Shown here piece by piece: positions 7,709 to 25,899 of a stretch of DNA of 32,593 nt. The notes beneath the pieces are model-generated. The model was not told the origin of the DNA. It worked only from the letters and a program-made list of their open reading frames with translations, and ran no database searches. The translations under genes were made by a program, and so were the position numbers. The number at the start of each line of letters is the position of its first letter. The first letter of the stretch is position 1. The DNA comes from an uncultured Clostridia bacterium. Lineage in GTDB: Bacteria > Bacillota > Clostridia > Oscillospirales > Ruminococcaceae. The stretch spans positions 1 to 32,593 of the forward strand of contig CANQPX010000021.1 of the NCBI GenBank assembly GCA_947625915.1. The letters are read 5' to 3'.

Positions 7709-7960
7709 TAGGCAGCACCGCGCAAAGAACGCCTTACGGCTTTGCCGCACATCTGCTTGCATATTTTCCGTCATATTGTCCGAAAGATCCTTGACATACG
7801 ACATGTATGCAAAAAGCTAAAGCTTTTGCGGCTCTTTCAGCCAATCTGGCGTGGTCTCCCCTACTACAGGGGAGGTGTCAGCGAAGCTGACAGAGGGGCT
7901 GACCGACAGACTAAAATCTGACGGCGCATCTGCACGACAATCTTTGCGCGGTGCTGCCTA
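7709..7960. mobile_element. MITE-like element with TA target duplication
   Basis: The 18-base ends GGCAGCACCGCGCAAAGA (7711-7728) and TCTTTGCGCGGTGCTGCC (7941-7958) are perfect inverted repeats flanked by TA on both sides (7709-7710 and 7959-7960). This is the insertion signature of IS630/Tc1-mariner elements. The inside (about 212 bases) has no open reading frame of use. It contains smaller hairpins, such as CTCCCCT/AGGGGAG and TGTCAGC/GCTGACA near 7857-7892. It is therefore non-autonomous and needs a transposase from elsewhere. It has landed directly upstream of the first gene of the phosphosignalling island, and its right end is 52 bases before that ATG. Confidence 0.8.
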
Positions 7961-8012: not shown

Positions 8013-8606
8013 ATGAAACAATGCCCCAAGGGTCACATCTATGATGAAAAAATGAATCCCTCTTGTCCGTATTGCTCGGACAGCAGCGGCTTTCAGCCCA
8101 TCGGTCTCGGCGGTCAGCCCGAATTCCCGAAAACCGTTCCTATAATGAATGACAGCGACGCCGTAAGTGACGCTTTCCCGCCGACTGTGCCGGTAGATAA
8201 CGGTTCAGCAGGCGGCAGCTCCGGAATGAGCGTTACTATCGCTCTGGAAGAAACGGAAGCAGGCATAAACCCCGTAAGAGGCTGGCTCGTTGCGGTGGAC
8301 GGCGATAAGAAAGGATCTTCCTTCGTTATCCACGGCGAACAGAATTCCGTCGGAAGGGGAAGTAAGTTCGATATAAACCTTTCCTTTGACAGAGCCGTTT
8401 CTTCGGACGGAAACGCTGTGATAGCATATGATTCCAAAAACAGCAAGTTCTTCCTCAGCCCCGTTCTCGGAAAAGGAAAAAACAACGTTTATCATAACGA
8501 TTCGATGCTCCTTATGCCTGTGGAACTGCATGACTACGATAAAATACAGTTCGGTACGGCAACTTATGTTTTCAGAAGCTTCTGCAACGAAAACTATACA
8601 TATTGA
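8013..8606 (+). CDS. Zinc-ribbon/FHA-domain protein
   Basis: A 197-residue cytosolic protein. The N-terminus carries a short metal-binding motif C4-x3-H8 and C18PYC21. A flexible Pro/Ser/Gly region follows (about residues 25-85), then a C-terminal FHA-type beta sandwich (about 88-192) with the SVGRG turn that normally contacts phosphothreonine. FHA domains bind pThr peptides, so this is likely an adaptor for the kinases encoded downstream. The canonical SxxH and NGT loops are poorly conserved, so binding activity is not certain. A GAAAGG ribosome site precedes the ATG. It is the first gene of a same-strand cluster, and three bases separate its stop from the next ATG. Confidence 0.8.
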   Translation: MKQCPKGHIYDEKMNPSCPYCSDSSGFQPIGLGGQPEFPKTVPIMNDSDAVSDAFPPTVPVDNGSAGGSSGMSVTIALEETEAGINPVRGWLVAVDGDKKGSSFVIHGEQNSVGRGSKFDINLSFDRAVSSDGNAVIAYDSKNSKFFLSPVLGKGKNNVYHNDSMLLMPVELHDYDKIQFGTATYVFRSFCNENYTY

Positions 8607-8609
8607 TAT

Positions 8610-9401
8610 ATGAAACGCGGCGGCTTTTTTATCCGTATGAAAATTACGGACTCGGACGTTAAGCGTATCGCTCTCGGCAGTATCAGCGACCGCGGCGCAA
8701 GAAATTATCAGGAGGACAGCTTCGGCTTCTCTTCGGTAAAGAAAGCAGACGTGGAGAAATACGGCTTTACGGCTGTTGTTGCGGACGGAATGGGCGGAAT
8801 GTCGGGCGGAGCAAAGGTCAGCGCTTATGTTGTTTCATCACTGCTCGAACTGATAAGAGACAGCGCGCCGGATATCCCGAGACATATACTGCTGTCAAAG
8901 GCTCTTTGCAGGATAAATGAAAACGTCGTTCTCAGCGGCATAGGCGGAGGTTCTACGGCGGTATCGGCAGTATGTACTTCAAAGGGCATATACTGGTGTA
9001 CGGTAGGCGACAGCAGGATATATCTTTTCAGCGGCGGAACGCTCACGGCACTGAATGAGGACGGAGATTACATGAACCGCCTTATGGAACAGGTCATTTC
9101 GGGCGATATGACTTTCGATGAGGCGGGAGAAAACAAAAAAAAGGATTCACTCGCACAATATATCGGCTGCAAAAACGGGATCTCTCCCGATGGGAACCCG
9201 AAACCTTTCGTTCCCTCTTTGGGCGATAAACTTCTGCTTTGTACGGACGGAGTGTATAATGCTCTTTCGGAAACGGAGCTGTCGGAGTCGCTTTCAATGC
9301 ACGCGGACGAAGCTGCGGCGGATATAAGGAACAAAGTCCTGTTAAAAGGTTTTAAGGATCAGGACAATTTTACGGCGGTAGTATTGGAATTTACCAAGTA
9401 A
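8610..9401 (+). CDS. Soluble PP2C-type protein phosphatase
   Basis: Metal-dependent Ser/Thr phosphatase of 263 residues (254 if the second ATG at 8637 is used). All main PP2C motifs are present: SDRGARNYQEDSFG with the metal aspartate, VVADGMGG, TVGDSRIYLF, LLCTDGV and the final DNFTAVVLEF. No membrane segment or extra domain is seen, so it should act in the cytoplasm. It is expected to reverse phosphorylation by the neighbouring kinases. Neither start codon has a clear ribosome site. The first ATG lies three bases past the previous stop, so translation is probably coupled to the FHA gene. Confidence 0.92.
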   Translation: MKRGGFFIRMKITDSDVKRIALGSISDRGARNYQEDSFGFSSVKKADVEKYGFTAVVADGMGGMSGGAKVSAYVVSSLLELIRDSAPDIPRHILLSKALCRINENVVLSGIGGGSTAVSAVCTSKGIYWCTVGDSRIYLFSGGTLTALNEDGDYMNRLMEQVISGDMTFDEAGENKKKDSLAQYIGCKNGISPDGNPKPFVPSLGDKLLLCTDGVYNALSETELSESLSMHADEAAADIRNKVLLKGFKDQDNFTAVVLEFTK

Positions 9402-9423
9402 TTTACGAAAGGAAAGTATTGTT

Positions 9424-10956
9424 ATGAAGAGATTTTTTAAACTTCTGTCCGTCATGGTAACTGCCGTGATGGCATTATCGCTTATTGCGGTGCCTTCGGG
9501 CGCGGAGACGATATCCGACGCAAAAGAAGGCGTTGTATACATTGTTTCAAATTTTACTTCTACGAGCAGTAATCGCTATATATGGAGTTATGAGACTTTG
9601 GTAGGCGCAGGCATATGGGGTCGGGGAGACGGTTCTTCGGGAGATTACGGTTATCAGACCGAGTATGACCCCACTATATCTTTCAGAGGCAGCGGATTTG
9701 CGATCGGCAATGAGGGCGAACCGGTAGAATATATCGTTACGAACGCTCATGTTGTACTTGATGAAACGGCAAGCGGAATAAAAAGCCTTGATCCGCTCAA
9801 TGCAACTATGAACGTCAGCAGCAAAAAGGCTTCGGAAGTATTGGTGTACTTTTCTTACGGAGCAAATGATTTTATGCGCGCTCAGATATATATGGTAAAT
9901 GAGGAGAAGGATATATGCGTTCTTAAACTTCCTCAGGCGACAGATAAGAGAAAACCTTTGGTAGTATGCCGTTCTTCGGATATAGATGAAAATGATGACT
10001 TCGCGGCACTGGGTTTCCCGGGTGACTCGGATCTGCTCATGGACGGCACTTCTATCTCATATGATATGAACGACATTACCACCACAAGAGGCGGTATTTC
10101 AAGAAAATCCACAGATGAAAACGGCAGGAACGTTTATCAGATAGATGTCGATATCGCTCCGGGAAATTCCGGCGGTCCGTTAGTAAACTCCAAGGGCGAG
10201 GTAGTCGGCATAAATACATATTCAATAACAAATCTTTCAAGCGGACATCAGCAGAATTACGCTATAGTAATCGATGAACTTCTTTCAATAATAAACCGCG
10301 ATGTCGTTCCGTATACGCTTTCGGGTGAATCTTCCGCAGGAAGCGGAACTGACGGCGAAGAGGACGTAACTGAGGGAAATAACGACGCGGCGGAAACTGC
10401 GGCAGAAGAAACTTCCGCGGCAGGAGAGGAAACTGTTTCTGCAGCTGCGGACGTTGACAGCGGAAATTCGGAAAGTTCAAATAATACGGTGCTGATAGTT
10501 GTAATTATTGCGGCAGCAGTCGTGATCGCTGCAGTCGTGATCGCGGTAGTGCTTTCAAAGAAAAAGGCTCCGGCAGCTGCGGGAACTCCTGCAAATGTTT
10601 CCGGTCAGGCTATGCAGCCTACAACGGCGGCAGACCATTCTTCAAGAGGCGCAGTGATAACAGGCATGAAGGGAATAATGGCAAACAGATCCTTCAATGT
10701 AAACGGCAGCATAGTTCTGGGAAGAAATGCTCAGAAATGTAACGTATGCTTCCCGGTAGACGCAAAGGGCATATCGGGCGTTCACTGCCAGATCAGACAG
10801 ACTGCGAACGGTTATGAGATAACGGATCTCGGTTCCAGCAACGGAACTTTCCTCGGAAACGGTCAGAAACTTACGCCGAACGTTCCTACAATGCTCCCGG
10901 ACGGCACATATTTCTATCTCGGAAGCGCGGAACAGCTTTTCCAGATCAAATATTGA
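9424..10956 (+). CDS. Exported trypsin-like protease with membrane helix and cytoplasmic FHA domain
   Basis: A 510-residue fusion. Residues 1-27 form a signal peptide (MKRFFKLLSVMVTAVMALS, ending near SGA). A trypsin/HtrA-like protease domain runs to about 300 with a complete triad: His109 in TNAHVVLDE, Asp163 in EEKDICVLKL and Ser249 in GNSGGPL. A Glu/Ala/Ser-rich linker follows (about 300-350), then one membrane helix (about 354-378) ending in SKKK, and a C-terminal FHA domain (about 415-508) with LGRN, SGVHC and GSSNGTFLGNG. The topology puts the protease outside and the FHA domain in the cytoplasm. No PDZ domain is seen, unlike HtrA. A GAAAGGAAAG ribosome site precedes the ATG. I infer that phosphoprotein binding inside controls or localises proteolysis outside. 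Confidence 0.93.
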   Translation: MKRFFKLLSVMVTAVMALSLIAVPSGAETISDAKEGVVYIVSNFTSTSSNRYIWSYETLVGAGIWGRGDGSSGDYGYQTEYDPTISFRGSGFAIGNEGEPVEYIVTNAHVVLDETASGIKSLDPLNATMNVSSKKASEVLVYFSYGANDFMRAQIYMVNEEKDICVLKLPQATDKRKPLVVCRSSDIDENDDFAALGFPGDSDLLMDGTSISYDMNDITTTRGGISRKSTDENGRNVYQIDVDIAPGNSGGPLVNSKGEVVGINTYSITNLSSGHQQNYAIVIDELLSIINRDVVPYTLSGESSAGSGTDGEEDVTEGNNDAAETAAEETSAAGEETVSAAADVDSGNSESSNNTVLIVVIIAAAVVIAAVVIAVVLSKKKAPAAAGTPANVSGQAMQPTTAADHSSRGAVITGMKGIMANRSFNVNGSIVLGRNAQKCNVCFPVDAKGISGVHCQIRQTANGYEITDLGSSNGTFLGNGQKLTPNVPTMLPDGTYFYLGSAEQLFQIKY

Positions 10957-10983
10957 ACCGTTGTTTAAGAAAGGATCAAACGT

Positions 10984-12189
10984 ATGATAATCGATTCAGC
11001 CGAATATACCTGTGCGGGCGGTCACAGCGTAAATGAAGATTCGTACCTGTGCAGCAGGGAAAGAGGGCTTTTTATTGTTGCGGATGGTCTTGGAGGACAT
11101 TCAGACGGAGAAGTGGCGTCCTCCGCAGCGATAGGATATTTTAAAGAAAATTGCTTCGGCGGTTACACCGATGAGCGTATAACAGAGCTTATGGAAGGTG
11201 CAAACACCGAGGTCCTGAATAAAGGCGACGGCGGCAAAACGACCGTCGCCGCGGCTTTTATTGAAAACGGACGATTTGTATATGCAAATGCGGGAGACAG
11301 CAGGGTGTATTTTTTCAGAGGGAACAAGCTGACGGCTCAGACGAAAGATCATTCCGTTTGTCAGGCTTCGGTGGATATGGGTCTTATCCGTCCGGAGGAT
11401 ATACGCGGCAGCGAGGACAGAGCAAGGCTCCTTAAAGTTCTGGGCAGCGAGGAAAAACTGAATATCAAAAAACATTACCAACCGATAAAACTTGAGAACG
11501 GAGACGCTTTTCTGATATGCAGCGACGGGTTCTGGGACTATGTGTACGAGTCGGAAATGGAAGCGGATCTGCTCAAATCGGACAGCGCGGACGTGTGGCT
11601 GAAATATATGCTGAAAAGGCATATACTTCGCGGTCAGAACAAGGGCGATAACTATACGGCGGTATGCGGCATAATACACATCGACAAGGACGAGGTATTT
11701 GAAGATATCCCGTATGTAAAGGATATGCCGAAAACGACAGAAAAAAAGAAAAAAAAGGACCGTTCCGCAAACACAGCCGTTTTAGCGGCGGCAATAATTG
11801 CAGTCGTTGCGGTGATCGCGGTCATTGCAGCGGTGGTATTGTTAAAAAGCCGCGGGGGAGACGGTGAGGATCAGAACGATCTTAAACAGTCCGCAGCAGT
11901 GCTTTCGGAAACTTCACCGCCGCCGAATGAGAACAGTTTTACAAGCCCCACAAGCGCAACGTCAGAATTGCTCGCTTCCGTAACAGAAGAAATTACGACA
12001 GCTTACGAAAGTTCTTCTTCGGAAACTTCGGAAACGTCCGAAATGACCGGAACTTCCGAAACATCCGATACGTCCGAAGCATCGGAAACTTCGGATACGT
12101 CCGAAACATCGGGATCGTCGGATCTGTCGGGACCGCCTTCGGAAACAACAGCAGAAAATGATATCGGCAGAGAACATTTGTCGGTGTGA
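10984..12189 (+). CDS. Membrane-anchored PP2C phosphatase with Ser/Thr-rich outer tail
   Basis: A 401-residue protein. A cytoplasmic PP2C domain (about 1-237) has GGHSVNEDSY, FIVADGLGGHSDGE, NAGDSRVYFF, LICSDGF and GDNYTAVCG, so all metal ligands appear intact. A basic KKKKKDR stretch leads into one membrane helix (about 262-286). The rest (about 290-401) is low-complexity Ser/Thr/Glu with many TSE and TSD triplets and should lie outside the cell, as a wall-spanning stalk or a glycosylated tail. The architecture parallels PstP/Stp-type phosphatases that partner receptor kinases, but the tail is unlike theirs. An AGAAAGGA ribosome site precedes the ATG. The gene is 27 bases from the protease-FHA gene. 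Confidence 0.92.
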   Translation: MIIDSAEYTCAGGHSVNEDSYLCSRERGLFIVADGLGGHSDGEVASSAAIGYFKENCFGGYTDERITELMEGANTEVLNKGDGGKTTVAAAFIENGRFVYANAGDSRVYFFRGNKLTAQTKDHSVCQASVDMGLIRPEDIRGSEDRARLLKVLGSEEKLNIKKHYQPIKLENGDAFLICSDGFWDYVYESEMEADLLKSDSADVWLKYMLKRHILRGQNKGDNYTAVCGIIHIDKDEVFEDIPYVKDMPKTTEKKKKKDRSANTAVLAAAIIAVVAVIAVIAAVVLLKSRGGDGEDQNDLKQSAAVLSETSPPPNENSFTSPTSATSELLASVTEEITTAYESSSSETSETSEMTGTSETSDTSEASETSDTSETSGSSDLSGPPSETTAENDIGREHLSV

Positions 12190-12229
12190 AACGGATAATA
12201 TCCGATTTAAGGATATAAGCTGTTATCGC

Positions 12230-12258
12230 TTGAAATTTACGGAGTTCAATGATATAAT
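12230..12258 (+). promoter_or_regulatory. Internal promoter before the first kinase
   Basis: TTGAAA (12230-12235), 17 bases, TATAAT (12253-12258). The expected start point near 12265 is only about 12 bases before the ATG and falls in the ribosome site (AAGGAG, 12261-12266). If it is used, the transcript would start nearly leaderless. The match to consensus is good. Confidence 0.55.
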
Positions 12259-12276
12259 AAAAGGAGAAGCGTTTAT

Positions 12277-13338
12277 ATGGTTACATTGGGAAATAAAACG
12301 CTGTGTTCGAGCTGCTTTTCGCCGATAAGAAAAGAACCCTGCAAAAAATGCGGGTTTTCTTCCGAGAATTATGTTCCGGACGATATGGTCCTGCCATGCG
12401 GAACGATACTTATGGGAAATTTTATAATCGGCAAAGTTCTCGGACGCGGAGGCTTCGGGGTAACATACCTTGCGTATGATGTGAAATATAATAAGATCAT
12501 TGCTGTAAAGGAATATTTCCCCATAGAACTTGCCGTAAGAAAAAAAGGCGGGACCGCTTTGATGGTGCGCGACAAAAGATCTGCGGAACTGTTCAAGGAA
12601 GGCGTTATGAAGTTCTATAACGAAGCGGGGTTCATCGCAAAATTTTCCGATGAACCTGATATCGTGAAAGTATATCAGTTCTTTTATGAAAACAATACCG
12701 CTTATTTTACCATGGAATACCTTACGGGTATGACACTGAAAGACTATGTTGTGAACTGCGGAACGATAAACGAGGGGCAGGCGCTTTATATCGCGGACAA
12801 GGCGGCGTCGGCATTGGCGCATATCCACGGTAAGAACGTTCTGCACAGAGACGTCTGCCCTGACAATATAATGCTTTGCAGAGACGGCAGTGTGAAACTG
12901 TTGGATTTCGGCTCGGCAAGACAGGTGTTCCCCGAAGGTTCGCAGCTGCTGACGGTCATTCTTAAACCCGGCTTTGCCCCTATAGAACAGTATATGCGTA
13001 AGGGCAAACAGGGCGAATGGACGGATATTTATGCCCTTGCGGCTTCGATCTTTTACGGACTCACAAAAAAAGTTCCCGAAAATCCCCAGAACCGTATCGA
13101 AGATGATTCGGATATGGAAAGCAATGTTTATAACATTCGTCCCGAATTGTGGAACGTAATATATAAGGCGATGATGCTCAAATATACCGACAGGTATCAG
13201 TCTACGGAAGAATTCCGCAAGGCGCTTTCGGATATCCCGCTGAAACGGCAGAATATCAGGCTCCCCGGCAGGATCAGCCGTATGAGCGATACAGACAGCC
13301 CTCTAAGACAGCTGCTCTCAAAGCTGTTCAGGAGCTGA
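12277..13338 (+). CDS. Soluble zinc-ribbon Ser/Thr protein kinase (kinase 1)
   Basis: A 353-residue Hanks-type kinase. The N-terminal zinc ribbon has C10xxC13 and C22xxC25. The kinase domain shows the glycine loop LGRGGFGVTY (55-64), Lys78 in AVKEYF, the catalytic loop HRDVCPDN with Asp192 and Asn197, the metal aspartate Asp210 in LLDFGSA, and the late signature KPGFAPIEQY then WTDIYALA. The lysine usual in HRDxKxxN is Cys194. The C-terminus is a short basic tail with no membrane helix, so the protein is cytosolic. It is the smallest and most divergent of the first three kinases and lacks an ectodomain, so it may relay or be activated by the receptor kinases next to it. Confidence 0.92.
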   Translation: MVTLGNKTLCSSCFSPIRKEPCKKCGFSSENYVPDDMVLPCGTILMGNFIIGKVLGRGGFGVTYLAYDVKYNKIIAVKEYFPIELAVRKKGGTALMVRDKRSAELFKEGVMKFYNEAGFIAKFSDEPDIVKVYQFFYENNTAYFTMEYLTGMTLKDYVVNCGTINEGQALYIADKAASALAHIHGKNVLHRDVCPDNIMLCRDGSVKLLDFGSARQVFPEGSQLLTVILKPGFAPIEQYMRKGKQGEWTDIYALAASIFYGLTKKVPENPQNRIEDDSDMESNVYNIRPELWNVIYKAMMLKYTDRYQSTEEFRKALSDIPLKRQNIRLPGRISRMSDTDSPLRQLLSKLFRS

Positions 13339-13363
13339 CGCGGGAAAGGAGCGTTTCACTTGT

Positions 13364-15664
13364 ATGTTTGAAATAAACAATAAAAAGCTTTGTGAGAACT
13401 GCTTTTCGGAAGTTAAGGACGGGATATGCGGGAACTGCGGATATTCACCCGAAAATGCCGCAGAGGATCATACCGTTCTTCCGCTCGGCACTAAACTCGA
13501 TAATAAGATCATCATAGGCAGAGTAATGGGCAAAGGCGGTTTCGGGATAACATATCTCGGCTATGACATAAGAATGGATAAAGTTATCGCGGTAAAGGAA
13601 TATTATCCTAACGGGATCGCTTACCGTTCAAACAGCGGAACGGAAGTACTTCTCGCTGACCCCAAATCGGCGGAAGCGTTCTCAAAGGGCGCGGAAAAAT
13701 TCTACAGCGAAGCGGAAATGGTGGCGCAGTTCAACGGAAATCCGAATATAGTGAGCGTGTATGATTTCTTCCGTGCAAATAACACGGTCTATCTGGTGAT
13801 GGAATTCATAAACGGTATCACTCTTAAAAATTACATAAGACTGCATGGAAATATATCGGACGGTCAGGCACTGTATATCATGGATAAAATGGCTTCTGCG
13901 CTGAGCATTACCCACAGCGCGGGAGTGCTGCACAGGGATATTTCTCCGGACAACATAATGATATGCAAGGATAAAAAGATAAAACTCATAGATTTCGGAG
14001 CGGCAAGGCAGATATTTGCGGAAAGTTCTTCAAACCTGACGGTCGTTCTGAAACCGGGATATACGCCTGTTGAACAGTATACGAAAAAGGGCATACAAGG
14101 TGCATGGACGGATATTTATGCTCTGGGCGCGTCGATATATTATGCTCTGACGGGAGTTGTACTTGACGATCCGTATGAGAGAATGGAAAGCGATGATGAA
14201 TTTTCTTCAAATAAACGGAAGATAAATACTTCTCTTTGGAATATCCTTAAAAAGTGTACGATGATAAATGCTTCGGACAGATACGGCAGCGCAATAGAAC
14301 TGCGGAAAGCTTTGTCGGCGGTAAATGCTCCGTTAAAGCCCGAACCGCTGACGCTTTCACCTGAGGATACGGGAAATATCACGGCGGAAACGCCTTCTCA
14401 GGCAGAAGATACCGCTGCGAAAGATGTTTCCAAGGAGGAGATCACAGAAGCTCCCGAGCGGAAAGATGATGTAAAAACGGAAGATAATGCCGAAGAAACA
14501 GTGAATATTACGGACGATCTTCCCGTTGACAGTGAAGGTTACGATCCGCAGGTAAATGTTTATAAGAAAAAAGGCGGAAAGAAAAACGGAAAACTCATTG
14601 CGGGGATCTGCACGGCGGCGGTGGTAGTTATTGCCGCGGCGGTCGGAGCGGTGATCGCAGGCAGAGAAAACAATGACGCTCCTATCGTCGAGACTTCGGA
14701 AAGCACTTCGGCTGCGGTCACGGAAACAGAGACCGAAGCAAAAACCGAAACGGAGACGGAGACTGAAACTTCACGGCGTGAGGTCATGACTACTTACAGT
14801 TCGGAAGAACTCGACGGCACTCACGAAAGGATCATAGAACTTGACAGTTCCTATCCGGGAGACAGGGAAAAGGGAAAAAATTCGATATATAAATCTTCAC
14901 TTTATATTTTCGACGGGGATATGAAGTTCACTCTCGCTCTGGAGTTCGTTGACAGCGAACAGGACAGTGACGGCGGATATAAACGTATGCTCAGACTGAG
15001 AGACGGAGAGGAATTTATTGATATAGACGTTATCGGCAAAGAAGCAGACAGCGAAGGCTGGTACGAAGTTTCGGACAATGAATTCTCGTTCATTCTTCCA
15101 TATGAGAGCTACAAAAATATAAAGGGAAGGATATCCTTTGAGGTATTGAACCTTTATGTCAAGTCGGCTTATGTTGAGGACGCGGGAAATGAGGACACAG
15201 GAAATGAGGACTCGGAAAACAAAAATACGGAAAACGTTCGGGCGGAAAGCAAGACCATAACGCTTGACAGTGAATATCCTGGCTTCTGGGGAAAAGGAAC
15301 CGATATCCCCAAGTCGGAACTTACGGCTTTCGGCGGAGATGTGGAGATAACTCTTGATATTTCCGCAGATGACTATGACGTGGAGCCCGAAAACGGTACG
15401 TATTTCTATAACATAAAAACCATGGATCCCGATAACGGCTGGGCGGCGGTACACGTTCTTGATGCAAAAAAAGACGGGGAGCAGGTCGAGCCGCGCGGTT
15501 ACAGCGGTTCAGATGACAGCGTTTATGATGTGGATAAAGATACGAAAAGTTTTTCTTTCAGGATAGCGCGAGGGGATATCGAAGCACTGGGAGACAGCGG
15601 ACTGGGCTTTCAGGTATGCAACGTTACGATAAATTCCGCAGAGCTGAAAGCGGCGGAGAGTTAA
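13364..15664 (+). CDS. Receptor-type zinc-ribbon Ser/Thr kinase with two ectodomain modules (kinase 2)
   Basis: A 766-residue protein. Zinc ribbon C10xxC13, C22xxC25. Kinase domain with GKGGFGITY (56-64), Lys78, HRDISPDN (Asp192, Asn197), IDFGAA (Asp210) and KPGYTPVEQY, reaching about 325. An acidic, disordered juxtamembrane region follows (about 325-405), then one membrane helix (about 411-433), a Thr/Glu repeat stalk (about 440-465), and two related beta-rich modules outside the cell at about 488-605 and 630-766. The modules share an (L)DSxYPG start, a GD(M/V)xxTL strand and an S/N-F-I/L strand. A short degenerate repeat (GNEDTGNEDSEN) links them. An AAAGGAG ribosome site precedes the ATG. 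The ectodomain type is unknown to me; a carbohydrate-binding beta sandwich is one guess. Confidence 0.92.
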   Translation: MFEINNKKLCENCFSEVKDGICGNCGYSPENAAEDHTVLPLGTKLDNKIIIGRVMGKGGFGITYLGYDIRMDKVIAVKEYYPNGIAYRSNSGTEVLLADPKSAEAFSKGAEKFYSEAEMVAQFNGNPNIVSVYDFFRANNTVYLVMEFINGITLKNYIRLHGNISDGQALYIMDKMASALSITHSAGVLHRDISPDNIMICKDKKIKLIDFGAARQIFAESSSNLTVVLKPGYTPVEQYTKKGIQGAWTDIYALGASIYYALTGVVLDDPYERMESDDEFSSNKRKINTSLWNILKKCTMINASDRYGSAIELRKALSAVNAPLKPEPLTLSPEDTGNITAETPSQAEDTAAKDVSKEEITEAPERKDDVKTEDNAEETVNITDDLPVDSEGYDPQVNVYKKKGGKKNGKLIAGICTAAVVVIAAAVGAVIAGRENNDAPIVETSESTSAAVTETETEAKTETETETETSRREVMTTYSSEELDGTHERIIELDSSYPGDREKGKNSIYKSSLYIFDGDMKFTLALEFVDSEQDSDGGYKRMLRLRDGEEFIDIDVIGKEADSEGWYEVSDNEFSFILPYESYKNIKGRISFEVLNLYVKSAYVEDAGNEDTGNEDSENKNTENVRAESKTITLDSEYPGFWGKGTDIPKSELTAFGGDVEITLDISADDYDVEPENGTYFYNIKTMDPDNGWAAVHVLDAKKDGEQVEPRGYSGSDDSVYDVDKDTKSFSFRIARGDIEALGDSGLGFQVCNVTINSAELKAAES

Positions 15665-15715
15665 AACTGTTCCCGAAAAGTTTTTAAAAATAAAAAAGGG
15701 GAGGCGGCATGGTCT

Positions 15716-17656
15716 TTGATAGAGATAAACGGAAAAAAGCTTTGCGAAAACTGTTTTTCCGAGATCACGGAAGAACCGTGCCGTTTTTGCGGTCATGACG
15801 GGTCGGAAAAGGACGATGTTTCCGCTTTGCCCGTGGGCGCAAGGATAAATAAGAATATAATTATAGGCAGAGTAATGGGCAGAGGCGGTTTCGGGTTAAC
15901 TTACCTTTGCTATGACACAAAAAAGGATAAAAAGATCGCAGTAAAGGAATATTTCCCGTATGGAACGGCATACCGTTCAAAAAACGGGAAAGATGTGCTT
16001 ACGACGGACGAAAAAGCTGCGGAGGCACTGAAAAAAGGCGCGGAAAGTTTCTACCGTGAAGCGGAGACCATATCACAGTTCGGCAAGAGCGGCGGGATCG
16101 TGAATATTTACGATCACTTCCGCGAAAACGGAACGGTATATATCGCGATGGAATATCTGAACGGGATAACACTGAAAAAATATGTAAAAGATAACGGTGT
16201 TATTTCGGAAGGTCAGGCAGTTTATCTGTTGGAAAAGCTTGCGGCAACGCTGGAAGTCATACACGGCAGGAACGTACTGCACAGAGATGTTTCTTCGGAT
16301 AACATCATGATATGCGGCGAAGGAGAGATAAAGCTTATAGATTTCGGCGCGGCAAGGTATTTTGACCCGTCAAATCCTTCTTCACATACAGTCGTTATGA
16401 AGCCCGGTTATACGCCTATCGAACAATATACAAAAAAGGGCAGGCAGGGCGCATGGACGGATATTTATTCTCTCGGCGCATCGGTATATTACGCACTGAC
16501 GGGAACACTTACGGACGATCCGTATGAAAGATTGGAAAATGACGAGAAATTCGGCGGCAATTCTTTCAGCATAAGCAGCGGGTTATGGGATATCATAAGG
16601 AAATGCACTATGGTAGATCCTGCGGAGCGTTACAGCAGCGCATCGGAACTGAAAAAAGCGGCGGCGGAAGTTTCGGAGAAGATACCTCCCGAACCGATAC
16701 TTTTGAATTCCGATAATATCAATACCGCGGCAGCACCTGCGAGCGATCGGGCAGAAAAACTTCAAAAGCAAAAATTTAATTTCGGACGCTTTTTTACGAC
16801 GGCAGCACTTATGCTGATGATAATAATAACAATAGTCGGAGCAGGTCGGTTCGCAGAAACAAATGAGGAAAATAAACATTCAAACGGCATTACTTTTCCG
16901 ATAGACGACGAGTACCCGGGTTTCTGGAAAACAGGGAACCTGATAGAAAAAAGCGATCTGTCGGCATTTAAAGGAGATATAAAGTTCACGCTTGAACTTG
17001 AGCCGATAGAAGTTAATCCTTGGCAAGGCTATACGAAAGAGATAGTATATGCTTACGGGATAAGGGTAAAAGATATGCAGGGCGTGCCGGTGGAAGTTTC
17101 GGCATTTAATACGGCGGTGAATGACGATGGATTTTTTGCGTTCAATAAAGGGTTGGAGGAATTTGTTTTTGTACTTCCGAGGAGTTCGCTCGAAGCGGTA
17201 AATGACGGCATATGTTTTTCCTCGGACAATGTGATGATAAGATCGGCATATGCGGAAGAATACGATCCTTCTCTTTATGCTGCGGGGAAAGGCGCGCTGT
17301 GCTATGATATGAGCAGCGGCAGGCAAAAAGGTTATACGGACTATATCCCCAAAAAGGATCTTGAAAGCATAGGCGGGGATGTTCTGATAACGGTGGACGA
17401 ATTGGAAGTATACTGGACGGAATATCCGTGGTACAGACCTTTGGATCATGATGAGAATTTTGTGCATATTTCGGGTGACAACATATTGCCGTCATGGTTC
17501 GGAGATCAATATCTTATAGGTAACGGAGAAGGCGTTGACAAACTGAGATTTGTTATTTCCGAGGAAGAGATAGCGGGATTGGACGAAAAGGGACTGAAAT
17601 TCCTGCTGGCGGGCATAGAATTTAAAAAAGTCTTTATAGAAAAAGCTGACAGCTGA
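15716..17656 (+). CDS. Receptor-type zinc-ribbon Ser/Thr kinase (kinase 3), TTG start
   Basis: A 646-residue paralogue of kinase 2. The start is TTG, because MIEINGKKLCENCF aligns with MFEINNKKLCENCF of kinase 2 and GGGGAGG lies about 11 bases upstream. The nearby ATG at 15709 is out of frame. Zinc ribbon C10xxC13, C22xxC25. Kinase motifs are GRGGFGLTY, Lys77, HRDVSSDN (Asp191, Asn196), IDFGAA (Asp209) and KPGYTPIEQY. The juxtamembrane region is short, the membrane helix is at about 356-378, and the ectodomain has two modules (about 385-520 and 525-646). These begin with DDEYPGFW and with a diverged GALCYDMSSG segment, both followed by SxL/KDL-x-GGD/KGD-type strands. The module order suggests duplication from a common ancestor with kinase 2. 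Confidence 0.9.
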   Translation: MIEINGKKLCENCFSEITEEPCRFCGHDGSEKDDVSALPVGARINKNIIIGRVMGRGGFGLTYLCYDTKKDKKIAVKEYFPYGTAYRSKNGKDVLTTDEKAAEALKKGAESFYREAETISQFGKSGGIVNIYDHFRENGTVYIAMEYLNGITLKKYVKDNGVISEGQAVYLLEKLAATLEVIHGRNVLHRDVSSDNIMICGEGEIKLIDFGAARYFDPSNPSSHTVVMKPGYTPIEQYTKKGRQGAWTDIYSLGASVYYALTGTLTDDPYERLENDEKFGGNSFSISSGLWDIIRKCTMVDPAERYSSASELKKAAAEVSEKIPPEPILLNSDNINTAAAPASDRAEKLQKQKFNFGRFFTTAALMLMIIITIVGAGRFAETNEENKHSNGITFPIDDEYPGFWKTGNLIEKSDLSAFKGDIKFTLELEPIEVNPWQGYTKEIVYAYGIRVKDMQGVPVEVSAFNTAVNDDGFFAFNKGLEEFVFVLPRSSLEAVNDGICFSSDNVMIRSAYAEEYDPSLYAAGKGALCYDMSSGRQKGYTDYIPKKDLESIGGDVLITVDELEVYWTEYPWYRPLDHDENFVHISGDNILPSWFGDQYLIGNGEGVDKLRFVISEEEIAGLDEKGLKFLLAGIEFKKVFIEKADS

Positions 17657-17680
17657 GAATAATTGAAAGGAAATATTTAT

Positions 17681-18070
17681 ATGGATACGGTAGATCTTGA
17701 AAGAAAGCTTAAAGAAGACGTTTTTTTTGACGAAGCAGCCGTGTTAGAAAACAAAGTTCCGGATATACATATTCTTATAAATAAATATATTGCGGAAAAG
17801 AAACTTTCCCATGCGGACGTGATACGCAAACTGAATGTGGAGAGGAGTTACGGTTATCAGCTCCTTAACGGCAAGCGTGTGCCTACAAGGCTCCACATAA
17901 TAAAACTCGGACTGATCTTCAGACTGGAACTTGACGAGATGCAGAAGCTGCTGAAAGCGGCGGGAAAGGAGATACTCTATGCGAGAGATCTCACCGATGC
18001 AAAGGTGATATATGCGATAGAGCATAAATTTGACTATGATAAAGCCTGTGAATTTGCTTTTGAAGAATGA
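17681..18070 (+). CDS. Helix-turn-helix protein within the kinase cluster
   Basis: A 129-residue protein started at the ATG behind AAAGGAAA; a TTG six codons earlier has no better support. An acidic helical N-terminus (about 1-30) is followed by an XRE/lambda-repressor-like fold (about 32-95): LINKYIAEKK, then SHADVIRKLNVERSYGYQLLNGKR as the likely turn and recognition helix, and IIKLGLIFRLELDEMQKLL as the closing helices. The remaining 35 residues (EILYARDLTDAKVIYAIEH) extend the helical bundle. It has no ligand or membrane domain. It starts 25 bases after kinase 3 and so is probably co-expressed. It may be the transcriptional output, or a non-DNA-binding adaptor of this fold that kinases use. 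Confidence 0.75.
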   Translation: MDTVDLERKLKEDVFFDEAAVLENKVPDIHILINKYIAEKKLSHADVIRKLNVERSYGYQLLNGKRVPTRLHIIKLGLIFRLELDEMQKLLKAAGKEILYARDLTDAKVIYAIEHKFDYDKACEFAFEE

Positions 18071-18073
18071 CTC

Positions 18074-18102
18074 TTGATTTCCGGGGCGGGATAGGGTATA
18101 AT
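18074..18102 (+). promoter_or_regulatory. Internal promoter before kinase 4
   Basis: TTGATT (18074-18079), 17 bases, TATAAT (18097-18102). It starts four bases after the stop of the helix-turn-helix gene and leaves a leader of roughly 75 bases before the kinase 4 ATG. Kinase 4 can therefore be expressed separately from the upstream operon. Confidence 0.65.
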
Positions 18103-18183
18103 TATTAAGGCGGTACCGTGCAGATCGCAGGCGCGGTGCGGACGATAACGGGATCTATTCCGAAACAGAACGGAGTTATATAT

Positions 18184-19167
18184 ATGGAAAAAGTCTGCGG
18201 GAGATGTTCTTCTCCGGTAAAGGGCAGTTTATGTCCCGTATGCGGATATGATTGCAGCATAAAAAGCGAATCGGTCGCTCTGAAAGCGGGGAGCGTCCTT
18301 GACGACAGATATGTTATAGGCAGAGTGATAGGTTCGGGCGGTTTTGGGATAACATATATTGCTTACGACACGGAAAAGGAACGGACGGTCGCGGTAAAAG
18401 AATATTATCCCAAAGGGATCGCGATACGCGCCGAGGACGGTTTTACGGTAGAGCCGATAGTTTCGATGCAGAAAAGCGAGTTCCTGTCGGGAATGGAAAA
18501 ATTCAGGAACGAAGCGGATATACTTTCGGCTCTCAGCACGGATACGGACGTTATAAAAGTATTCGGGACATTTTTACAGAACGGCACAGTCTACTATGTA
18601 ATGGAATATGTTCACGGAATGACGATAAGGGAATATACGGAAAAATACGGGAAGATAAATGAGGGACAGTTTATTTATGCGGCGGGGAACATTTCTTCCG
18701 TATTCGGGCATATCCACAGCAGGAACGTTATACATAGAGATATTTCGCCGAATAATGTCATGGTGGATATCAGCGGGCAGGTACGGCTGGTGGATTTCGG
18801 GAATGCAAGGCAGTTCATATTTGACGGAGAGAACAGCATGACAGTCGAGTTAAAGCCCGGATATGCGCCGCTTGAGCAGTATCAGCATTACGGGAACCAA
18901 GGACCGTGGACGGATATATATTCTTTGGGCATGGTGTTGTATTATGCGCTGACGCTGGCAGTTCCTGACGATCCGATGACAAGGCTTGATGATGACAGGG
19001 AATTCCAAGGCAGGCTTTCGGGTATAGACGGCAGGATAGTTCCTATATTGAACAGAATGACCGCAGTAAAAGTAAGCGACAGGTATTCATGCAGTGAAGA
19101 ACTTACGGCGGATATAAAGAGAGCGGGCATAAAGCCGCAGAAGTTTGACATAGCGGAGGGAAAATAA
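18184..19167 (+). CDS. Soluble zinc-ribbon Ser/Thr protein kinase (kinase 4)
   Basis: A 327-residue kinase, started at the ATG behind ACGGAG because the zinc ribbon begins at once (C5xxC8, C17xxC20). The upstream GTG frame adds 22 residues unlike the paralogues. Motifs are IGSGGFGITY, Lys72, HRDISPNN (Asp186, Asn191), VDFGNA (Asp204) and KPGYAPLEQY then WTDIYSLG. The domain ends near 315 and no membrane helix follows. It differs from the other three in the ribbon spacing before the kinase domain and in its own promoter. It may be the housekeeping or amplifying kinase of the island. Substrates are unknown. Confidence 0.92.
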   Translation: MEKVCGRCSSPVKGSLCPVCGYDCSIKSESVALKAGSVLDDRYVIGRVIGSGGFGITYIAYDTEKERTVAVKEYYPKGIAIRAEDGFTVEPIVSMQKSEFLSGMEKFRNEADILSALSTDTDVIKVFGTFLQNGTVYYVMEYVHGMTIREYTEKYGKINEGQFIYAAGNISSVFGHIHSRNVIHRDISPNNVMVDISGQVRLVDFGNARQFIFDGENSMTVELKPGYAPLEQYQHYGNQGPWTDIYSLGMVLYYALTLAVPDDPMTRLDDDREFQGRLSGIDGRIVPILNRMTAVKVSDRYSCSEELTADIKRAGIKPQKFDIAEGK

Positions 19168-19191
19168 AAAAGAGACGCGAGGTCTCTTTTT
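19166..19191 (+). terminator. Terminator after kinase 4
   Basis: AAAAGAGAC (19168-19176) pairs with GTCTCTTTT (19182-19190) around GCGAG, directly behind the kinase 4 stop. A-tract and T-tract on either side make it work in both directions. A related hairpin in inverted orientation lies at 19553-19575. Confidence 0.75.
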
Positions 19192-19501
19192 CAGACTATC
19201 GAAAAACTAAAAACAGGCGCGGACAAACTAAAAAAACGAAAAACAAAACTTCGCCCGAAAGGCTGGTCCAGCGCAGCCGCGCTGGCGGGGTCGAGGGGCG
19301 GAGCCCTCGTCGCCGTCCGCAGACGGCGAAATTCCCCTTACGAAGGCGCCTCTGCAAAGGGGTGAATTGCCGCTGCAAGCGGCAAGAGGGGAACGCTCTG
19401 CAAGAGAGAGCGTTCCCCTTGGCATTAACGATTAATACCATCTAAGCCTTGCCAAACAGCCCGGTGAGCTGTTTGGCAATACAGAGCAATTTGTTTTTCT
19501 A
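19192..19501 (+). repeat. Dispersed multi-hairpin repeat, copy 2
   Basis: Same orientation and order as copy 1 at 5611: A-rich head with GCGCGGACAAACTAAAAAA, CCAGCGC/GCGCTGG and the GAGGG/CCCTC hairpin, then GACGGCG. The central slots then differ. Here 19367-19385 is TTGCCGCT/AGCGGCAA, where copy 1 has TTTACGCC/GGCGTAAA, between the shared GGGGTGAAT and AGAGGGG. A second slot holds GGGGAACGCTCT/AGAGCGTTCCCC. The shared tail (CCCCTTGGCATTAACG, then GCCAAACAGC and GCTGTTTGGC) closes it. No gene is present in this stretch. Confidence 0.85.
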
Positions 19502-24334: not shown

Positions 24335-25156
24335 ATGCGTAAAGACAAAGTAAAAGCCATTGAAGCTCTTGTTGACAGCAGCATAAAAAGCTTTGCAGCA
24401 GGACTTACAAGCAGATATGAACGTGAATTAAATTGCGATGATGGTGTAATTAATATGAAAAAAATGAACTGTTTCATTGCAGAACTTGGTGATGAATTTA
24501 TGTTCTATTCTGCTTTTGTAAGAAGCTTTGACAGTAGTTTTGGGAACGTTCTGGAAATGCTTGGGAATAAAATAGCGACATTATCGTATGATGTAAAAGA
24601 CAATATAGATTCGTTTATTCTTCCCGATCAGACTCAAAGAATAGCTTCAATTTTGGATAATTATACCGATCATACAGCAGTTCCGTCGGTAGAGCATTAT
24701 TCAACATTTGATGTTATATATCCTAAAAATGTTACAAGTTATGAACGGACACACGTTACAGACAATTACTTTTATAATCCGAGTAAAAATGAACATTATT
24801 TGATTGAATTAAAGGCTTCCGGAGATTTGGACAATAAGAAAGCTAAAGCAGAGAAATCGGCACTTCTTGATGAATATTTTTTACTTAAAAATTTATTGAA
24901 AGATGATAAAACCGCAAAAGTAAAAATATTTTTTGGAACAGCTTATAACAAATACGGTGAGGGGAATTATTGGAAACAAGAAAGGGTAAGGCAGTTTTTT
25001 GCTGATGATGAACTCCTTATTGGCAAAGATTATTGGAACTTTGTATGTAATGATAAAGATGGGTTTAATGTTGTTTTTGGACAATATAAAAAATCTGCCG
25101 ATAGTATAAAAAAATCATTATCTACAATAAAAGCCTTATATTTTGGTGGGAAATGA
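24335..25156 (+). CDS. Type II restriction endonuclease, TdeIII-like
   Basis: A 273-residue predicted DNA-cleaving enzyme. The C-terminal half has HYLIELKASGDLDNKKAKAEK, in which E158-x-K160 with Asp126 (STFDVIYP) could form a PD-(D/E)xK nuclease site. The ELKASGDLDNKKAKAEK block resembles what I recall of the TdeIII restriction enzyme family; the recognition site cannot be read from sequence. It starts 18 bases after pheS with a GGAGGGGGAG ribosome site, and its last four bases overlap the start of the methyltransferase gene. Base composition is clearly more AT-rich than pheS or pheT (19 G+C in the 60 bases at 24721-24780), which points to acquired DNA. Confidence 0.8.
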   Translation: MRKDKVKAIEALVDSSIKSFAAGLTSRYERELNCDDGVINMKKMNCFIAELGDEFMFYSAFVRSFDSSFGNVLEMLGNKIATLSYDVKDNIDSFILPDQTQRIASILDNYTDHTAVPSVEHYSTFDVIYPKNVTSYERTHVTDNYFYNPSKNEHYLIELKASGDLDNKKAKAEKSALLDEYFLLKNLLKDDKTAKVKIFFGTAYNKYGEGNYWKQERVRQFFADDELLIGKDYWNFVCNDKDGFNVVFGQYKKSADSIKKSLSTIKALYFGGK

Positions 25157-25899
25157 TTAATATAGATAAATTGAATAAATGTACTATAATTAATGATGAT
25201 TGCTTTTCAGTACTAAAAAAAATACCAAACAATTCCATAGACTTGATTTTGACAGACCCACCTTATAATCTTGCTCAATATAGTACAGGTAATTTATGCT
25301 TTGATTGGCGGACAGATATAAATAATGACCTTGCAGAATGGGATCTGAAACTTTTGGATCCGAAATCTTTAGTCCCTGAATTTAAACGTATTCTTTCTCC
25401 AAAGGGAAACATATTTATTTTTTGTTCATACAATCTGATCGGTGAATATCATAAAGCTTTTGATCCGGAATTTGATACTTTTCAATTCATGGTATGGCAT
25501 AAAACAAATCCTGTGCCAAATATTAGAAAATCATCTTTTTTGAATAGCTGTGAATTGATAATTTCCTGTTGGAATAAAGGTCATACATGGAATTTTACTA
25601 ATCAAAGAGATATGCATAATTTTATTGAAAGTGGTATTTGTATGGGAAAAGAGAGGATTAAAGATGAAAACGGAAAGAATCTTCACCCTACTCAAAAACC
25701 TGTTTCAGTTTTAGAAAAAATAATTAAGATCGCTTCAAATGAAAATGATGTGGTTTTAGATTGTTTTAATGGGGTTGGAAGTACAGGAGAAGCCGCGTTA
25801 AAACTAAATCGGAAGTATATTGGAATTGAAATAGATACCAAATATGCTCAAGCATCTAAAGTGAGATTAGAGAATATTTTAATGAATAAAAATATTTAG
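25153..25899 (+). CDS. Type II DNA methyltransferase (N6-adenine or N4-cytosine), partner of the nuclease
   Basis: A 248-residue S-adenosylmethionine-dependent DNA amino-methyltransferase. Motif IV DPPY is at residues 35-38, and motif I lies near the C-terminus (DCFNGVGSTGEAALKL from Asp203, then YIGIEID). The order IV then I marks the beta group. The middle part should hold the target recognition region. N6-adenine versus N4-cytosine cannot be told from DPPY alone. The gene begins in an ATGA overlap with the nuclease gene, so the two are translationally coupled. The nuclease comes first, which is less usual than methylase first. Like the nuclease gene it is AT-rich. Confidence 0.9.
   Translation: MINIDKLNKCTIINDDCFSVLKKIPNNSIDLILTDPPYNLAQYSTGNLCFDWRTDINNDLAEWDLKLLDPKSLVPEFKRILSPKGNIFIFCSYNLIGEYHKAFDPEFDTFQFMVWHKTNPVPNIRKSSFLNSCELIISCWNKGHTWNFTNQRDMHNFIESGICMGKERIKDENGKNLHPTQKPVSVLEKIIKIASNENDVVLDCFNGVGSTGEAALKLNRKYIGIEIDTKYAQASKVRLENILMNKNI

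What the first reader, a model, noticed from the sequence alone, without database searches (positions are those of the whole stretch)
8013..19167. Self-contained kinase/phosphatase/FHA/protease signalling island
Nine same-strand genes encode a zinc-ribbon FHA protein, soluble PP2C, exported protease-TM-FHA, membrane PP2C, one soluble and two receptor kinases, a helix-turn-helix protein and another soluble kinase. The domain calls are seen in sequence. PP2C reversing Hanks kinases and FHA binding pThr are established for those families. That they work as one circuit, sensing outside and acting on a surface protease and a regulator, is inference. I know of no described system with this exact set.
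Basis: partly seen in the sequence, partly recalled or inferred. Interest (0 to 1): 0.8.

Follow-up and report, generated by a model that had tools for sequence, protein, structure and literature searches.

The report
Receptor-kinase cassette with surface protease
A Ruminococcus-like bacterium carries a conserved gene cassette of outward-looking kinases, their phosphatases, and an exported protease tied by a phosphate-reading domain to the cell interior, which looks like a complete signalling unit with exchangeable sensors.

Summary
In detail: all nine genes are present, open and carry the domains named. It is not a one-off. The exported protease-TM-FHA protein occurs patchily (37 of 396 family genomes). 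Of 62 loci with it, 53 also carry a kinase, a PP2C and the zinc-ribbon FHA protein, 50 in one same-strand run. None of 20 control loci around plain HtrA-type proteases matches kinase, PP2C or FHA. Components co-diverge (Mantel r 0.77-0.84).

New here: (i) receptor ectodomains are swapped (LRR, beta-sandwich, others) while kinase domains stay conserved; (ii) other membrane proteins in sister islands carry FHA tails (vWA, RDD, DUF805, PrsW, FHA-FHA-ABC transporter); (iii) the zinc-ribbon FHA protein has a variable linker with a threonine-specific motif: T-[VM] 103 against 27.8 expected, S-[VM] not enriched. I propose that receptor kinases phosphorylate this linker, which docks FHA tails of membrane effectors, above all the protease; two PP2Cs reset it; an XRE-like regulator is a side output. 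Phosphorylation, binding and protease substrate are inferred.

The parts are known kinds; ten searches showed no paper on this set. New variant of a known kind.

The parts
8013..8606 (+). A: zinc-ribbon + Thr-motif linker + FHA protein, soluble (197 aa); proposed phospho-scaffold
8076..8270 (+). linker of A (65 residues, 22-86) with FPK-T-VPI, FPP-T-VPV and MSV-T-IAL
   Evidence: linker and first test; controls
8610..9401 (+). B: soluble PP2C phosphatase (263 aa)
9424..10956 (+). C: signal peptide - trypsin/HtrA-like protease - TM - cytosolic FHA (510 aa)
10984..12189 (+). D: PP2C - TM - Ser/Thr-rich external tail (401 aa)
12230..12258 (+). promoter-like site before E (11 of 12 consensus, TG before second hexamer)
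12277..13338 (+). E: soluble zinc-ribbon Ser/Thr kinase (353 aa)
13364..15664 (+). F: receptor kinase, zinc ribbon - kinase - TM - two beta-sandwich repeats (766 aa)
15716..17656 (+). G: receptor kinase with the same kind of ectodomain (646 aa, TTG start)
17663..18070 (+). H: XRE-like helix-turn-helix protein (ATG probably at 17681)
18074..18102 (+). promoter-like site before I (10 of 12 consensus)
18118..19167 (+). I: soluble zinc-ribbon Ser/Thr kinase (349 aa; ATG perhaps at 18184)
19165..19193 (.). hairpin after I, possible terminator (listed for the minus strand)

Best explanation
A modular transmembrane signalling cassette. Receptor kinases F and G read an external ligand through their ectodomain and switch on themselves and the soluble kinases E and I. 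The kinases phosphorylate threonines in the disordered linker of A (T-[V/M]-x-hydrophobic). Phosphorylated A then docks the cytosolic FHA domains of membrane proteins, always the exported protease C and, in related islands, other FHA-tailed membrane proteins, so that an inside event controls an outside enzyme. PP2Cs B (soluble) and D (membrane) remove the phosphates. H is a probable transcriptional side output. Shown by sequence: domains, active-site motifs, conservation as a unit, ectodomain swapping, the Thr-specific motif. Predicted from sequence: topology. Inferred: ligand sensing, that A is the substrate, FHA docking, control of protease activity, and what the protease cuts.
For: Unit: 53 of 62 loci complete against 0 of 20 controls; 50 of 62 in one same-strand run; co-divergence of A, the next PP2C and C, r 0.77-0.84, 0 of 2000 permutations (47 loci). 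Receptors: kinase part of F 74-78% identical to four relatives while the ectodomain is 30-34% (one of the four, L043, holds a run of N that lowers its figure); 49 ectodomains fall in 13 sequence groups with LRR, DUF5050, pectate-lyase-like adhesive, transglutaminase, Big_2 and other domains. Scaffold: T[VM] 103 against 27.8 +- 4.7 in shuffles (max 42 of 500) in 57 of 58 A linkers, S[VM] 24 against 27.0, no T[VM] excess in C linkers (13 against 15.8) or D tails (19 against 18.6); in 23 non-redundant linkers 35 against 10.7 (max 20 of 1000), S[VM] 10 against 10.0. FHA binds pThr, not pSer (established knowledge). The four window kinases' activation loops read T-V-x-[LM]. C's FHA keeps G433, R434, S451, H454 in 7 sequences. 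Effector side: FHA tails on vWA, RDD, DUF805, PrsW and FHA-FHA-ABC proteins in sister islands. Precedent: autophosphorylated Thr in the disordered PknG N-terminus anchor the FHA protein GarA (PMC8546545, passages).
Against: No phosphorylation, binding or expression data exist here. I chose the motif after seeing the linkers. Motif number per linker does not rise with the number of FHA proteins in the locus (Spearman -0.17, p 0.22). 22 of the 40 activation loops printed (of 100 parsed) carry Ser where the window kinases carry Thr (my count). Kinase ectodomains show a moderate T[VM] excess too (270 against 185), and kinase juxtamembrane linkers a mild one for Thr (46 against 31.8) and Ser (44 against 32.5) alike. 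Two internal promoter-like sites argue against one operon. The protease serine pattern is unmatched in 5 of 63 C-type proteins, of which three lack the serine by my reading, and my His pattern in 15 of 63, so cleavage may not be the whole role in all islands.
Confidence: 0.5

Rival explanations
1. The FHA of C (and of A) binds the kinases directly, through phosphorylated activation loops or juxtamembrane linkers, and the protease trims receptor ectodomains as feedback; A's linker is an internal GarA-like switch that only turns A itself on or off.
For: Predicted topology puts receptor ectodomains and protease in the same compartment. Kinase juxtamembrane linkers show a mild excess of T[VM] and S[VM]. 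GarA/OdhI precedent: N-terminal phosphorylated Thr, FHA protein recruited by the autophosphorylated kinase (PMC8546545, passages).
Against: The Thr-specific excess lies in A's linker, not in kinase linkers, where Thr and Ser are equally and mildly enriched. 41 of 57 linkers hold two to four T[VMI] motifs, more than an internal switch needs.
Confidence: 0.25
2. Anti-phage defence: the kinases and protease form a defence island.
For: Kinases score against PADLOC mad6 and PD-T4-6 and the protease against RT-Protease and LmuA profiles. Patchy distribution. A TdeIII restriction-modification pair lies about 5 kb away.
Against: Those profiles match kinase and trypsin domains in general; NCBIfam MAD6 scores 111-124 bits against a cut-off of 460. 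Exported protease, external receptor domains and reversing phosphatases fit surface signalling better. The restriction pair sits between pheS and pheT, not in the island.
Confidence: 0.07
3. Cell-envelope or fibre-adhesion control: the same cassette, but its main job is to sense plant polysaccharide and switch on surface enzymes through H, the protease being minor.
For: Ectodomain relatives occur in 20 of 21 genus genomes; those read in five loci are small secreted, C-terminally anchored-looking proteins; one sister island holds a GH5 cellulase with the same LRR type as its kinase; weak fold matches include a glucan-binding protein (6e57).
Against: F's ectodomain matches no Pfam family and no carbohydrate-binding module is among the 25 families listed for the 49 ectodomains; fold matches have low TM-scores; H was found in few related islands.
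Confidence: 0.15
4. Co-located but independent Ser/Thr signalling genes, gathered without forming one circuit.
For: Separate promoter-like sites; 9 of 62 loci lack a kinase, PP2C or A in the stretch fetched.
Against: Core order and co-divergence over many genera with differing flanks where checked; 0 of 20 control loci.
Confidence: 0.03

Closest known systems
Actinobacterial pstP locus (fhaA, fhaB, pstP, rodA, pbpA, pknA, pknB)
   Same: Two FHA proteins, PP2C and two kinases in one conserved locus, kinases with separate start sites (PMC6554272, passages; it also notes pknB-fhaA in a subset of Firmicutes).
   Different: No PASTA domains, RodA or PbpA here; FHA sits on an exported protease; two PP2Cs; zinc-ribbon kinases; patchy distribution.
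PpkA-PppA-Fha1 of type VI secretion (link to that system recalled; the three proteins are named in PMC6213207, passages)
   Same: Kinase, PP2C and FHA protein as one post-translational switch.
   Different: No secretion genes among the window genes scanned.
GarA/OdhI and PknG
   Same: FHA protein with phosphorylatable Thr outside the FHA; a disordered autophosphorylated Thr segment recruits FHA (PMC8546545, passages).
   Different: Multi-motif linker between a zinc ribbon and the FHA; the ETTS motif is not in A.
Rv1747 FHA-FHA-ABC transporter phosphorylated by PknF (title in the reference list of PMC6213207)
   Same: Sister islands L143 and L164 encode proteins of this layout (read; Pfam run on L143 only).
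   Different: Not in this window.
HtrA/DegP and MarP-type proteases
   Same: Trypsin-like exported serine protease, best NCBIfam match MarP at 66.8 bits; PDB relatives are HtrA-type.
   Different: Below the MarP cut-off of 250; no PDZ match; TM plus cytosolic FHA.
Zinc-ribbon kinase + PP2C + vWA sets in actinobacterial conflict systems (PMC7159879, passages)
   Same: Zinc-ribbon kinase linked to PP2C; some sister islands add a vWA protein.
   Different: No FHA-tailed protease described in the passages seen.

Membership tests
Actinobacterial pstP/pknB/fhaA locus | PASTA-bearing PknB-type kinase | tested here: not met
   No PASTA in P0005-P0007, P0009; kinases 131-172 bits against the 450 cut-off of NF033483
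Actinobacterial pstP/pknB/fhaA locus | rodA and pbpA in the locus | tested here: not met
   Neither family among the 29 window ORFs scanned
Type VI secretion kinase switch (PpkA-PppA-Fha1) | secretion-system genes alongside | tested here: not met
   Pfam of 29 window ORFs; TagH model 29 bits against 120 for C
HtrA/DegP proteases | trypsin-like domain with His-Asp-Ser | tested here: met
HtrA/DegP proteases | PDZ domain | tested here: not met
   no PDZ match in P0003 at E up to 1
GarA/OdhI | match to the OdhI equivalog model | tested here: not met
   P0001 matches no NCBIfam model; P0003 16.8 bits against 200
GarA/OdhI | phosphorylatable Thr outside the FHA domain of the same protein | tested here: inconclusive
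   Thr-specific motif enriched; phosphorylation untested
MADS defence kinase MAD6 | curated cut-off for MAD6 | tested here: not met
   111-124 bits against 460
Hanks-type (eukaryotic-like) Ser/Thr kinases | Lys, HRD and DFG catalytic motifs | tested here: met
   over related loci Lys in 99, HRD and DFG in 101 of 102 kinases
Hanks-type (eukaryotic-like) Ser/Thr kinases | kinase activity | not testable with these tools
   needs an assay
PP2C phosphatases | PP2C domain with metal-site aspartates | tested here: met
   domain; motifs read

The most novel reading that the evidence does not exclude
The zinc-ribbon FHA protein is a multivalent phospho-threonine hub: receptor kinases with swappable ectodomains write on its linker, and a swappable set of FHA-tailed membrane proteins (protease, vWA, RDD, PrsW, ABC transporter) reads it, giving bacteria a plug-in receptor-kinase pathway with inside-out control of a surface protease.
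Probability: 0.45. Interest if true: 0.78.

Novelty: new variant of a known kind. Interest (0 to 1): 0.63.

Why it matters
If true, Ruminococcus and related Clostridia would carry receptor-kinase pathways, some with leucine-rich-repeat ectodomains as in plant receptor kinases, in which one scaffold links many possible sensors to many possible membrane effectors. It would give bacterial FHA signalling a clear rule (Thr motif in the scaffold, FHA on the effector), make phosphosites predictable from sequence, and show how a cytosolic phosphorylation can steer a protease on the cell surface.

Tried and rejected
Defence system: considered through PADLOC; matches look generic for kinase or trypsin domains. 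Phage or plasmid cargo: viral contigs gave 10 loci, all matching only the protease half of the query (residues 1-294); phages 1 record, FHA part only; plasmids 29 records, none covering 80% of the query, 8 listed; the Subdoligranulum one among these has only the protease match in 20 kb.

Clean empty site: not found. The right flank (orf19583-nnrD-orf21847-orf22250-pheS-pheT, not all members in each) is kept in four genus members without a full-length C match, with other genes where the island would be; in a fifth (G003) only orf19583 and nnrD; hflX lies elsewhere in all five.

One, a Ruminococcus sp. MAG (L049), has the order A, PP2C, C, PP2C, kinase, kinase; a short Clostridia contig (L054) has A next to a protease.

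Structure: ectodomain model is moderate (mean pLDDT 74.5) and PDB matches are weak and mixed, so I claim only beta-sandwich repeats. Motif number against FHA number: no correlation. A separate kinase-HTH fragment on another contig of G015 may be an assembly break and is not used.

Literature: ten searches (80 and 99 aimed at known comparators) showed no description of this cassette; the library lacks most subscription papers and preprints.

Dropped before counts: 4 of 66 loci without a protease-FHA ORF (L154, L155, L172, L230); L047 and L048 not counted; the G314:C67 hit not fetched; 1 of 58 A proteins without a parsable linker, 6 of 58 in the first test; 34 of 57 linkers removed as redundant; Mantel test on 47 of 62 loci.
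Full report
WHAT IS THERE. The window is the whole contig C21 of a 2.1-Mb genome, 89% complete. The closest named relative found is a Ruminococcus sp. MAG (L049, 58% in the best segment of C). Nine same-strand ORFs lie at 8013-19167. Pfam and NCBIfam give A FHA, B PP2C, C trypsin-like protease plus FHA, D PP2C, E, F, G, I kinases. A's FHA scores 20.0 bits against a 20.7 cut-off. H matches HTH families only weakly, but nine relatives align and its model (mean pLDDT 89.9) has partial matches to XRE-type domains such as SinR and DdrO (TM by target 0.79-0.80, no Foldseek E-value under 0.001). C's FHA is the only FHA match at E <= 0.001 in the genome; 4 of 7 kinase matches and 2 of 4 PP2C_2 matches lie in the island. 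Elsewhere the genome has a PASTA kinase with a PP2C beside it.

TOPOLOGY AND ACTIVE SITES. By hydropathy and the positive-inside rule, C has a signal peptide, the protease outside, a TM segment and a cytosolic FHA; D, F and G have one TM each. The protease triad and FHA core residues G433, R434, S451, H454 are invariant in seven close sequences. Over all related loci the kinase motifs HRD and DFG are found in 101 of 102 kinases and the Lys motif in 99; a zinc-ribbon-like N-terminus in 83. In 63 C-type proteins my patterns match the protease serine motif in 58, the histidine site in 48 and the FHA GR in 61; of the five without the serine pattern, two have GMSGG and three lack the serine by my reading. 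The histidine pattern may be too narrow.

IT IS A CONSERVED, PATCHY UNIT. Profile A1 of protein C matches 37 of 396 genomes of the family (24 of 126 genera) at E <= 1e-25, 27 of 394 of the order (six of these already counted in the family) and 6 of 398 of the phylum at E <= 1e-20 (own genome included). I examined 66 loci (window): 40 of the family (two genomes, G011 and G012, rather), 21 of the order, 5 of the phylum. 62 of 66 have a protease-FHA ORF. Of these 62, 53 also have a kinase, a PP2C and the A-type FHA protein within the fetched stretch of up to 20 kb, the window being longer (33 of 37 family, 17 of 20 order, 3 of 5 phylum); three of the nine others (L148, L210, L221) are contigs under 10 kb. 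50 of 62 have all four in one unbroken same-strand run; A is directly followed by a PP2C in 47 of 62. As control I took 20 loci of 8-20 kb around trypsin-like proteases without FHA from genomes: 0 of 20 has a kinase, PP2C or FHA match; one has an HTH match. Pairwise distances of A, the next PP2C and C correlate (A-PP2C r 0.84, A-C 0.77, PP2C-C 0.81; 0 of 2000 permutations each; 47 loci). This fits inheritance as a block, though shared descent of the hosts alone would also give correlation.

PLACE IN THE CHROMOSOME. Right of the island, nnrD, pheS, pheT and small genes between are kept in G018, G016, G001 and G013, which have no full-length C match, with other genes on the island side. hflX, left of the island here, lies elsewhere in these. 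So the island sits at a variable junction; I found no clean empty site.

RECEPTORS ARE SWAPPED. Between F and four relatives the kinase part is 74-78% identical and the ectodomain 30-34% (a run of N in L043 lowers one figure). The 49 ectodomains first collected fall into 13 groups by BLAST. Among the 25 families Pfam lists for them are leucine-rich repeats (LRR_8 in 11, BspA-type LRR_5 in 7), DUF5050 in 4, pectate-lyase-like adhesive in 4, and single cases of transglutaminase, Big_2, MORN and PASTA. F and G have two repeats, modelled for F as beta-sandwiches; fold matches are weak. Relatives of this domain occur in 20 of 21 genus genomes. I printed ORFs of eight such loci: in five they are small secreted proteins with a C-terminal hydrophobic stretch and basic tail, in two the matching frame was not among the ORFs kept, and one (L239) is a receptor fragment with an H protein. 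So the receptors share a module with surface proteins. In G022 a GH5 cellulase in the island has LRRs like the neighbouring kinase.

EFFECTORS ARE SWAPPED TOO. 23 of 62 runs hold further FHA proteins. Of seven scanned, two carry vWA (one just under its cut-off), and one each RDD, DUF805, PrsW intramembrane protease and FHA-FHA-ABC transporter; in one (L217) Pfam found only FHA-type domains.

A THREONINE-SPECIFIC MOTIF IN A. The linker between zinc ribbon and FHA is variable but repeats short Thr motifs. In 57 of 58 linkers T[VM] occurs 103 times against 27.8 +- 4.7 in 500 within-sequence shuffles (max 42); T[VMI].[ILVM] 66 against 6.3; [KR]T[VM] 56 against 2.0; S[VM] 24 against 27.0. C linkers (13 against 15.8) and D tails (19 against 18.6) show no T[VM] excess; kinase ectodomains show 270 against 185, and kinase juxtamembrane linkers a mild excess for Thr and Ser alike. 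In 23 linkers under 50% identity: T[VM] 35 against 10.7 (max 20 of 1000), S[VM] 10 against 10.0. FHA domains bind pThr and not pSer (established), and the activation loops of the four window kinases read T-V-x-[LM], the same local pattern; 22 of the 40 loops printed have Ser at that place. I chose the motif after seeing the sequences, so the shuffle figures are descriptive; the Ser control and the non-redundant set are the stronger evidence. Against: motif count does not track the number of FHA proteins.

HOW IT MOST LIKELY WORKS. External ligand to F/G; kinases phosphorylate A; phospho-A docks FHA-tailed membrane proteins, above all protease C; B and D reverse it; H may carry the signal to transcription. 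Every step after the domain calls is inference; the precedent for docking is PknG with GarA/OdhI (PMC8546545, passages).

KNOWN OR NEW. The closest described locus is the actinobacterial pstP cluster (PMC6554272, passages); it shares the grammar but, as far as the passages go, has no protease, one PP2C and no swapping. A review of bacterial Hanks kinases has no hit for 'protease' or 'clostridi' in its main text (PMC6213207, find). The eLife survey of conflict systems mentions a zinc-ribbon kinase with PP2C and vWA in actinobacteria (PMC7159879, passages), a partial likeness. Ten searches found nothing on this set. I rate it a new variant of a known kind. Rechecking changed some details (start of I, linker coordinates, serine counts, one dropped argument from G015) but none that moves the odds.

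Noticed in passing
7710-7959: A 250-bp MITE-like element with inverted ends; 15 further matching pieces on nine other contigs of the genome (longest 95% identical). It ends 53 bp before A's ATG and may have replaced or supplied its promoter.
   Followed up: partly
24335-25899: A TdeIII restriction enzyme and DNA methylase in a low-G+C stretch sit between pheS and pheT; no match to them there in G018, G016, G001 and G013.
   Followed up: partly
L047 and L048 (G016, G018): Gene clusters with their own FHA, PP2C and kinase genes; in L048, which I read, the neighbours look like a Tad pilus (by reading, no profile run).
   Followed up: no
L040:11485-13224: A secreted GH5 cellulase with leucine-rich repeats like those of the neighbouring receptor kinase, inside the G022 island.
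   Followed up: partly
L240, L241, L244, L245, L246: Surface proteins, in tandem in some, end in a T-rich TGN-containing stretch, a hydrophobic segment and a basic tail: a possible unlisted sorting signal.
   Followed up: no
G000:C35 (L038, L139): A second PP2C plus kinase-like pair with zinc-ribbon-like cysteines, recalling TerY-P type triads (label recalled, not tested).
   Followed up: no
19240-19420: G+C-rich, hairpin-like stretches between the island and orf19583 (read, not tested).
   Followed up: no
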